Assembly: GCF_001922305.1 (NCBI RefSeq)
Contig: NZ_CP018839.1
Location: 682,001-746,000 of the forward strand
Direction: 5' to 3'
Length of the DNA: 64,000 bases
From: Thauera chlorobenzoica
Lineage (GTDB): Bacteria > Pseudomonadota > Gammaproteobacteria > Burkholderiales > Rhodocyclaceae
Made by a program: the position numbers and the translations under genes. Under the pieces are notes generated by a model. That model did not search any database and was not told where the DNA came from. It saw nothing but the letters and a program-made list of their open reading frames with translations. Below, one piece after another: positions 54,190 to 55,858 of this stretch. The first letter of the stretch is position 1. The number at the start of each line of letters is the position of its first letter.

Positions 54190-54268
54190 GCCGGTGCTGC
54201 TGCGCAGCCAGCAAGGCCCCGGCGGGGAGAGTGGCATCGCGCCCGAAGCACTCCGGCCCCCCCTGCGG

Positions 54269-54388
54269 CGGCCCCCGCACCCCGGCGAAACCCTGCGCGA
54301 GGATGTTTTGCCGGCGTTGGAATTGACGGTCACCCAGGCGGCACAAGAACTCCTTGAGTGTCTGGAAGGACTTGCGCGACACAATTAA
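54269..54388 (+). pseudogene. HigA-type antitoxin fragment, truncated
   Basis: The translated segment RPPHPGETLREDVLPALEL, followed by TVTQAAQEL, matches the N-terminus of HigA-family antitoxins, which open with HPGE-x-LRE and continue into the first helices of a Xre-type helix-turn-helix. The match stops near 54355. The frame then runs into unrelated codons and ends at TAA inside the first fic operator repeat. No HigB toxin is upstream. It is most simply a gene relic cut at the left boundary of the fic insert. Confidence 0.55.
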
Positions 54389-54401
54389 GTGTCGCGATAA
54401 T
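54372..54401 (+). promoter_or_regulatory. Predicted promoter of the HTH-Fic gene
   Basis: TTGCGC (54372-54377) and GATAAT (54396-54401) are separated by 18 bases. The first GCGACAC inverted repeat fills the spacer, and the second starts just after the -10 element, as expected for repressor control. Confidence 0.5.
54376..54395. promoter_or_regulatory. Operator 1 of the fic gene
   Basis: GCGACAC, six bases, GTGTCGC is a perfect inverted repeat lying within the spacer of the predicted promoter. Confidence 0.7.
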
Positions 54402-54405
54402 GGTT

Positions 54406-54436
54406 TTGCGACACATTATCCTGTTTAGTGTCGCAA
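54406..54436. promoter_or_regulatory. Operator 2 of the fic gene
   Basis: TTGCGACAC and GTGTCGCAA flank 13 bases at 54406-54436. It uses the same half-site as operator 1 with longer spacing. A further half-site, GCGACA, lies at 54449-54454 next to the ribosome site. Confidence 0.7.
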
Positions 54437-54463
54437 TTTAGGCGATGCGCGACAGGAAGAACC

Positions 54464-55858
54464 GTGGCCAGAATGATCCCGACAGAGACCTACGAGGCGG
54501 TTCTTGAAGCCATCGCTCGCTTTCCCGACGGTGCCAGCATCGAGCAGATTGAAGAAAACCTGTCTGCGCCGCCGAGCCGTCGAACGCTGCAGCGCTGGCT
54601 CAACAGCCTGATTGCTCAGGAGCGAATGCGTCGTGAAGGCCAAGGGCGCGCGGTCAAATATCTGCGTGGCAAGGTGGTCAGGGGACAGGGAAATGTCGCC
54701 CTGACGATAACTGCAACCGCTCACGCAGGAATCCTGATTCCCCTGTCACCTGAAGCGAAAGCGGTCGAGAAACAGGTCCGGCAACCCTTGGAGCAGCGCA
54801 CGCCCGTTGGCTACAACCGCGCATTTCTGGATGACTACCGACCCAACGAAACCTACTACCTCAGCGAAGTGGTTCGAGACGAACTGCTATCAAAGGGTCA
54901 AGCCGTCAGCAGCAATGAACCTGCGGGAACCTATGCACGGCAACTGGCCAATCGTCTGCTGATCGACCTCTCCTGGAACTCCAGTCGACTGGAGGGCAAC
55001 ACCTATTCCCTGCTGGAAACCGAACGATTGATTTCGGCTGGCGAGGCTGCATCAGGTAAGGATGCACTCGAAGCACAGATGATTCTGAATCACAGGGAGG
55101 CCATCGAGTTCTTGATCGACTCGGCCGGGGAGATTGGCTTCAACCGCTATACCCTGCTCAACCTGCACGCCTTGCTGTCCGACAACCTGCTGGACGATCC
55201 CACCGCCAGTGGCCGCTTGCGCACGATTGCCGTTGGCATTGGCCGGACCACATTCCTGCCGCTGGAAGGGCCACAACGGATCGAGGAGTGTTTTGACCAG
55301 GTGCTGGATACGGCCGCTGCCATACGAGACCCCTTCGAACAGGCGTTTTTTGCCATGGTGCATTTGCCGTATTTGCAGCCCTTTGAGGATGTCAACAAGC
55401 GGGTTTCCCGCCTGGCTGCCAATATTTCGCTGATTCGGCGCAACCTCTGCCCGCTGTCCTTCGTCGATGTCTCGCAGACAACTTACATCAGCGCCATGTT
55501 GGGTATCTATGAACTCAATCGCATCGAGCTGTTGCGCGACGTCTTTGTATGGGCATACAAACGATCCTGTGCGCGCTATTCTGCTGTGCGCCAGTCGCTG
55601 GGCGACCCTGATCCCTTCCGTTTGCAGCACAGGCAGCACATCACCCAAGTGGTCGCCACCGTGGTTCGTGAAAAACTGAGCAAGCCACAGGCAATCAGCC
55701 ATATCCACCACTTTGCGCAGGAGCGGATCGAGGCACCGGATCGCGAACGATTCATTGAAGTGGTCGAGACCCAACTGCTCAGTCTTCACGAAGGCAACAT
55801 TGCCCGATATCGCCTAAGGCCCAGTGAATTTCATGCTTGGCGCGAGCTCTGGAAATAA
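54464..55858 (+). CDS. Fic-domain protein with N-terminal winged helix and degenerate Fic motif
   Basis: Residues about 8-70 form a winged helix-turn-helix (IEQIEENLSAPPSRRTLQRW). The Fic domain includes a putative inhibitory motif S-x-x-x-E-G at 173-178 (SSRLEG) and the region LQPFEDVNKRVSR at 304-316. Canonical Fic enzymes have HPFxDGNGR there. Here the catalytic His is Gln305 and the Gly is Val310, so AMP transfer in the usual way is doubtful. The C-terminus (about 375-464) is helical and unassigned. The gene is clearly lower in GC than its neighbours. Start: GTG at 54464, behind AGGAAG, or ATG at 54473. Two GCGACAC operators at its promoter suggest autoregulation. Confidence 0.85.
   Translation: MARMIPTETYEAVLEAIARFPDGASIEQIEENLSAPPSRRTLQRWLNSLIAQERMRREGQGRAVKYLRGKVVRGQGNVALTITATAHAGILIPLSPEAKAVEKQVRQPLEQRTPVGYNRAFLDDYRPNETYYLSEVVRDELLSKGQAVSSNEPAGTYARQLANRLLIDLSWNSSRLEGNTYSLLETERLISAGEAASGKDALEAQMILNHREAIEFLIDSAGEIGFNRYTLLNLHALLSDNLLDDPTASGRLRTIAVGIGRTTFLPLEGPQRIEECFDQVLDTAAAIRDPFEQAFFAMVHLPYLQPFEDVNKRVSRLAANISLIRRNLCPLSFVDVSQTTYISAMLGIYELNRIELLRDVFVWAYKRSCARYSAVRQSLGDPDPFRLQHRQHITQVVATVVREKLSKPQAISHIHHFAQERIEAPDRERFIEVVETQLLSLHEGNIARYRLRPSEFHAWRELWK

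What the first reader, a model, noticed from the sequence alone, without database searches (positions are those of the whole stretch)
54372..55858. Possible autoregulated HTH-Fic system with a non-canonical active site
The protein joins a winged helix to a Fic domain whose motif reads QPFEDVNKR instead of HPFxDGNGR, losing the catalytic His, while keeping an S-x-x-x-E-G inhibitory-like motif. Its promoter carries two perfect inverted repeats of GCGACAC (one in the -35/-10 spacer, one at the start site) and a fifth half-site. The likely picture is a Fic fold reused as a ligand-sensing repressor or a different transferase that controls its own gene. The lower GC and the flanking relic indicate horizontal arrival.
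Basis: partly seen in the sequence, partly recalled or inferred. Interest (0 to 1): 0.7.

Follow-up and report, generated by a model that had tools for sequence, protein, structure and literature searches.

The report
Self-repressing mobile Fic-fold gene
A horizontally acquired bacterial gene encodes a DNA-binding head joined to an enzyme-like Fic domain whose key histidine is glutamine, and predicted binding sites in front of it and its relatives suggest that it switches itself off and travels as a self-contained module.

Summary
The gene runs from GTG 54464 to 55858 (464 aa): N-terminal winged helix, Fic fold (closest to human FICD) and a helical tail. His-to-Gln is not decay: Gln305 and the main motif residues are identical in 248 of 248 aligned sequences. 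The palindromes are a family trait: 49 of 78 upstream regions have inverted repeats with arms of 9 nt or more (shuffles: mean 0.75), and close relatives share five half-sites around a largely conserved GATAAT. In this genome the full palindrome occurs twice, only here. Half-site class follows recognition-helix residue 44 (Tyr in 19 of 19 GCGCA-type members, 0 of 91 others). Six of six two-copy genomes compared carry different operators. The gene is patchy, sits where relatives lack it, and is flanked by direct repeats more often than control genes (16 of 74 against 6 of 186), sometimes of hsdR. Best reading: a mobile, self-repressing Fic effector. What the Gln-type pocket does is unknown; a pure ligand-sensing repressor of nothing but itself is less likely. 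Nothing here is binding or activity data.

The parts
54464..55858 (+). wHTH-Fic gene, GTG start, 464 aa, TAA stop (alternative ATG at 54473)
   Evidence: Start by comparison with relatives; Pfam Fic
54482..54667 (+). winged helix-turn-helix, about residues 7-68; recognition helix residues 39-51
   Evidence: Model m6ab3732718ec: H7-18 H26-31 H39-51 E55-58 E65-68; residue 44 follows one operator class; Pfam Penicillinase_R only E 0.058, below cut-off
54749..55603 (+). Fic fold (about residues 96-380)
54980..54997 (+). S-x-x-x-E-G inhibitory-type motif, residues 173-178 (SSRLEG); Glu177
   Evidence: E177 and G178 in 248 of 248 (80 of the loci had been picked with patterns of which one covers this motif); low model confidence at residues 175-181
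55376..55411 (+). Fic motif QPFEDVNKRVSR, residues 305-316
   Evidence: Q305, F307, N311, K312, R316 in 248 of 248
55631..55855 (+). C-terminal helical domain, about residues 390-464
   Evidence: Model me12ac618d20d, high confidence over these residues; no PDB match with E <= 0.001
54375..54396 (.). operator palindrome 1 (8-nt arms, gap 6), between the presumed -35 and -10
54406..54436 (.). operator palindrome 2 (9-nt arms, gap 13), about the presumed start site
54449..54454 (+). fifth half-site GCGACA, at the ribosome-binding site
   Evidence: Seen in most rows of alignment A6; GCGCCA at the same place in the two class C rows
54372..54401 (+). presumed promoter: TTGCGC, 18 nt, GATAAT
   Evidence: Largely conserved in A6; not found by the consensus scan
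54266..54352 (+). higA relic (N-terminal part); its frame runs on to a TAA at 54386-54388 inside palindrome 1
   Evidence: TIGR02607 E 2.3e-6 on residues 26-54 of the translated piece 54191-54385, below the model's cut-off

Best explanation
A solitary, horizontally mobile gene for a bifunctional protein. Its N-terminal winged helix, probably as a dimer, binds an alternating array of half-sites that overlaps the presumed promoter and ribosome-binding site of its own gene and represses it (inferred from comparative genomics, not from binding data). The Fic domain, with an invariant Gln in place of the catalytic His and an invariant gatekeeper Glu and Arg, keeps a nucleotide-type pocket under strong selection and is the effector: a Fic enzyme of altered chemistry or a nucleotide-gated binding domain. 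When repressor occupancy falls, for instance on entry into a new cell or when the pocket meets its ligand, the gene is derepressed. The unit of movement is operator plus gene; it lands in or beside host genes, in a minority of loci with a duplicated stretch of the target, and its operator specificity diversifies, which would let two copies live in one cell without cross-repression.
For: Operators upstream: arms >= 9 nt in 49 of 78 against a shuffle mean of 0.75, and 1 of 71 and 3 of 74 in control windows. Half-sites switch as a set: 86 GCGACA and 0 GCGCCA in 24 class A loci, 139 GCGCCA and 5 GCGACA in 38 class C loci. Tyr44 in 9 of 9 training and 10 of 10 held-out GCGCA-type members and in 0 of 62 and 0 of 29 class A and C members. 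Sites only at the own gene or nearly so. Active-site invariance. Different operators in the 6 two-copy genomes compared. Gene absent between ubiA and the next genes in five relatives, patchy distribution (38 of 369 in the class, 18 of 200 in the order, 13 of 398 in the phylum, own genome included), direct repeats 16 of 74 against 6 of 186.
Against: No binding, expression or activity data. The A-versus-C helix signature found in training did not generalise (3 of 10 held-out A members); the version with residue 38 (32 of 34 A, 52 of 57 C) was fitted after seeing those rows. 7 of 78 training and 11 of 50 held-out upstream regions fit none of the three classes, and 2 of these 18 also have Tyr44; one GCGCA-type locus left out of the count for its incomplete alignment, L104, has Phe44. 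In five of the six two-copy genomes the second copy is a distant member (36-41% identical to the window protein), so a different operator may only reflect age. 58 of 74 loci show no direct repeats, and the window has none by blastn. The looser operator pattern has 22 places in the genome against 10 for the reversed pattern, so weak targets elsewhere are possible. Mutation of the His stops AMPylation and deAMPylation in FICD (passages of PMC8373988), so an enzymatic effector is not assured.
Confidence: 0.6

Rival explanations
1. Pure ligand-sensing autorepressor: the Fic domain is a dead enzyme that binds a nucleotide and relieves repression; any real output is a neighbouring gene read through from the same promoter.
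For: His is absent in all 248 aligned sequences while the pocket residues stay. In 7 of 80 loci HsdR-like sequence, whole or fragment, starts within about 30 nt after the Fic stop (L031, L034, L041, L047, L051, L053, L074), so there the repressor could control hsdR.
Against: No conserved downstream partner: the largest neighbour clusters span 6 of 80 loci, and the nearest downstream frame was on the opposite strand in 40 of 78 (frames called by script). The full palindrome occurs only at the own promoter.
Confidence: 0.2
2. Anti-phage defence gene: derepressed on infection, the Fic domain then poisons the cell or the phage.
For: PADLOC models PDC-S04 (E 1.7e-15) and SoFic (3.9e-13) match the Fic part; among neighbours at positions +-1 and +-2 are type I R-M, Zorya-type, BREX-type, Gabija-type, PsyrTA and SoFic matches at E <= 1e-20 (128 and 108 proteins scanned, only the first 25 families shown).
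Against: The PADLOC matches cover only the Fic domain. Neighbours also include housekeeping genes; no background rate for defence neighbours was measured.
Confidence: 0.3
3. Decayed copy: the motif is a local degeneration and the palindromes are fossil.
For: Low GC and a higA relic beside it.
Against: Intact 464-aa frame; Gln305 in 248 of 248; a relative at 98% and several at about 90% identity exist.
Confidence: 0.02

Closest known systems
CccR, Fic plus C-terminal HTH autorepressor (PMC9755527; passages read)
   Same: Fic protein that represses its own promoter through an inverted repeat near -35 and -10; class II inhibitory helix.
   Different: Has the catalytic His (HPFGNGNGRTVR), AMPylates FtsZ, HTH at the C-terminus, one pair of sites 26 bp apart, secreted. 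Here Gln, NKR, N-terminal wHTH and five half-sites.
Clade D2 of Khater and Mohanty 2015, Qx[FY]x[DE][GV]NKR, 45 sequences (PMC4454073; passages and section 6 read)
   Same: Same motif, with Gln for His.
   Different: Described there as usually single-domain and Doc-like; no operator or wHTH in the section and passages I read.
Fic-HTH fusions listed by Kinch et al. 2009 (PMC2686095; passages read)
   Same: Fic joined to HTH domains; the authors suggest the HTH may regulate fic expression.
   Different: A suggestion without operators; the Gln motif was not found in the text by my term search.
CbFic2 and SoFic type class II Fic proteins with C-terminal HTH (PMC10628234; passages read)
   Same: Class II Fic fold fused to a DNA-binding domain.
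   Different: Catalytic His present in CbFic2, HTH at the other end; CbFic2 was tested on random DNA, no own-promoter operator in the passages read.
Restriction-modification systems that insert with long target duplication; C-protein incompatibility groups (PMC3874152, PMC3031569; passages read)
   Same: Small self-regulating unit, mobile, with direct repeats of roughly 100 bp; regulators of differing operator specificity.
   Different: One gene, no nuclease or methylase; repeats seen in 16 of 74 loci only.
Human FICD and other class II Fic enzymes
   Different: Here no His, Val for the first motif Gly, and a wHTH (that FICD has TPR motifs is from PMC8373988).

Membership tests
Fic/Doc family (PF02661) | Profile match above the curated cut-off | tested here: met
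   37.4 bits against 24
Fic/Doc family (PF02661) | Fic fold | tested here: met
Canonical AMPylating Fic | Catalytic His in HxFx[DE]GN[GK]R | tested here: not met
   Gln in 248 of 248 aligned sequences
Class II Fic (inhibitory helix before the motif) | [ST]xxxE[GN] with motif Arg | tested here: met
   S173, E177, G178 and R316 in 248 of 248; geometry uncertain because residues 175-181 have low pLDDT
Khater-Mohanty clade D2 | Qx[FY]x[DE][GV]NKR | tested here: met
   QPFEDVNKR
Khater-Mohanty clade D2 | Single-domain ('usually'), Doc-like | tested here: not met
   464 aa with N-terminal wHTH and C-terminal domain
CccR-type HTH-Fic autorepressor | Own-promoter inverted repeats | tested here: met
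CccR-type HTH-Fic autorepressor | C-terminal HTH and catalytic His | tested here: not met
   wHTH is N-terminal, Gln305
CccR-type HTH-Fic autorepressor | DNA binding and repression shown | not testable with these tools
   Needs EMSA, footprint, reporter
Element inserting with long target duplication | Direct repeats of host sequence at both ends | tested here: inconclusive
   16 of 74 loci against 6 of 186 control genes; clear hsdR cases L047, L053, L034; none by blastn at the window
Penicillinase repressor type wHTH (PF03965) | Profile match above the cut-off | tested here: not met
   14.2 bits against 22.6

The most novel reading that the evidence does not exclude
A one-gene selfish element: operator, repressor and Fic effector in a single 1.5-kb mobile unit that inserts with long target duplications, diversifies its operator specificity into incompatibility groups so that several copies can live in one cell, and carries a Fic active site that works with glutamine instead of histidine.
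Probability: 0.25. Interest if true: 0.85.

Novelty: new variant of a known kind. Interest (0 to 1): 0.6.

Why it matters
In every member I aligned, the residue taught as essential for Fic chemistry is glutamine, with the rest of the pocket held constant. I found no study of its regulation or activity in the searches listed. The operators give a handle: promoter fragment, expected DNA contacts and natural specificity variants are named, so DNA binding, ligand and Fic activity can be tested directly. The Tyr44 rule links one residue to one operator class. If the mobile-module reading holds, it adds a single-protein kind to the self-regulating selfish genes otherwise known as toxin-antitoxin and restriction-modification systems.

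Tried and rejected
Local decay of the motif: rejected. Chance palindromes: rejected. A conserved partner gene: none found. Phage gene: 1 weak match in 50,697 phage records and 10 relatives in the viral contigs, so not mainly viral. NCBIfam gave no match for the protein. The promoter and terminator scan found neither. Column-wise mutual information between protein and operator class was not decisive: residue 44 ranked second, behind residue 162 outside the DNA-binding domain, because related sequences share many residues; the tree counts (4 changes of the GCGCA class, 3 of 3 independent pairs agree, sign test p 0.25) support but do not prove independence. The C-terminal domain alone gave no PDB match with E <= 0.001. 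Defence-gene enrichment among neighbours was not measured against a background. In some searches neighbour proteins were aligned only so that they could be scanned in bulk; those alignments mean nothing.

Rows dropped and biases: L006, L012, L020 and L049 left out of the upstream statistics (contig end or incomplete 5' end). The 80 loci are the best of 554 and were found with the peptide patterns WNSSRLEG and LLETERL[IL]S, so the invariance of the SSRLEG motif is partly built in for them; the Gln motif is not in those patterns. The 248 sequences include the window and were not freed of near-duplicates between loci and database proteins. In one search, 8 loci were dropped as duplicates and 3 of 59 rows had no start codon; 50 held-out members with a nearly complete match entered. 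Of the genomes with two matches, G100 and G828 were not compared for operators (pieces at contig ends), nor two plasmids with two places each (H10, H24). L005 in the direct-repeat count looks like a local tandem repeat. In 7 of the 16 loci with repeats (L019, L031, L034, L036, L038, L047, L053) both repeats lie close to the unit (up to 240 nt before the start and 62 nt after the end); in the others they lie further off.

Papers: listings; passages or one section of PMC4454073, PMC2686095, PMC9755527, PMC10628234, PMC3031569, PMC3874152, PMC8373988, PMC7479194; abstract and outline of PMC13373217. None of what I saw describes this family's autoregulation or mobility; the library holds open-licence papers only.

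Full report

The active site. The motif reads QPFEDVNKRVSR. In 248 aligned sequences (128 loci, the window included, and 120 database proteins) Gln305, Phe307, Asn311, Lys312, Arg316, Ser173, Glu177 and Gly178 are identical in all; Asp309 in 245. Eighty of the loci were found with patterns of which one covers the Glu177 motif, so that part is biased; the Gln motif is not. Of 120 proteins of a divergent branch, 116 match Q.FxD[VA]NKR, two more keep the Gln but differ later, and two were not read by the script. I saw no His at this place. In FICD this His is the general base of AMPylation and the proposed general acid of deAMPylation, and Glu234, the counterpart of Glu177 by motif, is the gatekeeper (passages of PMC8373988). 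So ordinary AMPylation is unlikely, but the invariance of Gln, Glu and the phosphate-binding residues says that the pocket has a function. A Gln clade with this motif had been noticed before: clade D2, 45 sequences, of unknown function (PMC4454073 section 6).

The operators. Two perfect palindromes, 54375-54396 and 54406-54436, and a fifth half-site at 54449-54454 form an alternating array with starts at 54376, 54389, 54408, 54428 and 54449. The heptamer alone is common here (26 in the window, 20.5 expected), but the paired form occurs only twice in the genome, both at this gene. The looser GCGACA-N2-20-TGTCGC has 22 places against 10 for the reversed pattern, so weaker sites elsewhere cannot be excluded. 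In an alignment of ten upstream regions most half-sites and a GATAAT box are largely conserved; of the two class C rows, L027 has GCGCCA-type sequence at all five places and L023 at four, its fourth being degenerate. Over 78 upstream regions, 64 have an inverted repeat with arms of 7 nt or more (20 shuffles: mean 12.1, maximum 21) and 49 have arms of 9 or more (mean 0.75, maximum 3); control windows gave 12 and 1 of 71 (300 nt further up) and 20 and 3 of 74 (downstream).

Specificity. By half-site the 78 fall into GCGACA 24, GCGCCA 38, GCGCA-type 9 and unassigned 7. The classes are nearly pure: 86 against 0 and 139 against 5 half-sites; the majority rule that defines the classes favours purity but does not impose it. 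Residue 44 of the recognition helix is Tyr in 9 of 9 GCGCA-type members and in 0 of 62 A and C members; in held-out members 10 of 10 and 0 of 29; 2 of the 18 unassigned also have Tyr, and one GCGCA-type locus outside the count, L104, has Phe. On a tree from the Fic part alone the operator class changes 15 times. The A-versus-C helix signature from training (W45, or P39 with M41) held in 21 of 24 A and 37 of 38 C members in training but in only 3 of 10 A members held out, with 17 of 19 C. More distant members (36-45% identical) often carry repeats of other sequence, such as TGGCCGTAT and ATCTCCTCAT. In six genomes with two members, the two have different operators in all six, judged by eye; in five of these the second copy is a distant one.

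Targets. In nine genomes with TATGTCGC...GCGACATA operators, eight have one such place and one has two; the coordinates put one directly before the Fic gene in each, and the reversed pattern gives none. Strong operators therefore point at the own gene. This is why I prefer an effector role of the Fic domain over a pure repressor: a repressor that controls only itself does nothing else.

Mobility. The gene has 57.1% GC and GC3 0.66, its neighbours GC3 0.94-0.95. Of the 20 ubiA loci fetched from the same family (one of them, L154, the window itself), L157, L165 and L166 show ubiA followed directly by the small gene and pyrF, L159 ubiA next to the small gene with pyrF 0.8 kb further, and L156 ubiA next to pyrF without the small gene; the other 15 show neither gene within the 1.5 kb held. 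In the window 1.75 kb separate ubiA and the small gene, and before the operator stands a higA relic. The distribution is patchy: 38 of 369 genomes of the class, 18 of 200 of the order, 13 of 398 of the phylum, own genome included, 27 of 72,556 plasmid records. Direct repeats flank the gene in 16 of 74 loci against 6 of 186 control genes in the same loci (Fisher p 8e-6; loci are not fully independent). The clearest is L047: 222 nt at 88% identity, upstream -336 to -119 and downstream from the end of the gene, both copies being the 5' part of hsdR; the upstream copy ends just before the operator and an hsdR frame starts at TAATG over the Fic stop. L053 (264 nt) and L034 (123 nt) are alike. HsdR-like sequence, whole or fragment, follows the Fic stop within about 30 nt in 7 of the 80 loci, and stands next to the gene in L095, L098 and L099. 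Insertion with long target duplication has been described for restriction-modification systems (passages of PMC3031569 and PMC3874152). For most loci, and for the window, no repeat was found, so this is a tendency and not a rule.

How it probably works. Supported by comparison: operators kept and placed over the presumed promoter, sites at the own gene, a residue that follows one operator class, an invariant pocket, mobility. Inferred: dimeric binding, repression, derepression on entry or by a ligand, and an output of the Fic domain. The closest worked example is CccR, a Fic-HTH protein that represses its own promoter through inverted repeats; it has the His, and its HTH is at the other end. 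I found no paper on the present family's regulation in the searches listed under Tried and rejected, which cover open-licence papers only.

Verdict. Autoregulation is very likely on comparative grounds; the function of the Gln-type Fic pocket is the open and interesting question.

Noticed in passing
own genome, G000:C1:1295536-1296939 (L002): A paralogue at 53% identity with GCGCCA-type operators; an IS3-like integrase fragment (recognised by eye) lies downstream.
   Followed up: partly
own genome, G000:C1:1448105-1448641 (L003): A third, distant Fic-domain match (28% identity over residues 175-344) on the other strand; not examined further.
   Followed up: no
window 54266-54352: Truncated higA antitoxin gene, probably a relic of the donor site or of an earlier module.
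   Followed up: partly
L031, L034, L041, L047, L051, L053, L074, L095, L098, L099: hsdR-like frames or fragments start right after the Fic stop codon, in L031, L034, L047 and L053 with a second hsdR 5' fragment upstream.
   Followed up: partly
L004: The 91% identical relative sits among Baseplate_J and Phage_base_V genes, so probably inside a prophage.
   Followed up: no
L066, L072: A related pair of genes lies directly downstream on the opposite strand; probably the two SoFic and Fic matches, which I did not check one by one.
   Followed up: no
residues 390-464 of the protein: Well-predicted all-helical C-terminal domain with several invariant residues (L441, H442, G444, A447, R448) and no PDB match with E <= 0.001 by Foldseek.
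   Followed up: partly
L184, L185, L186, L136: More distant members have operator arrays that include direct copies (TGGCCGTAT, TGGCCAGAA), about 20 nt apart, seen by eye.
   Followed up: no
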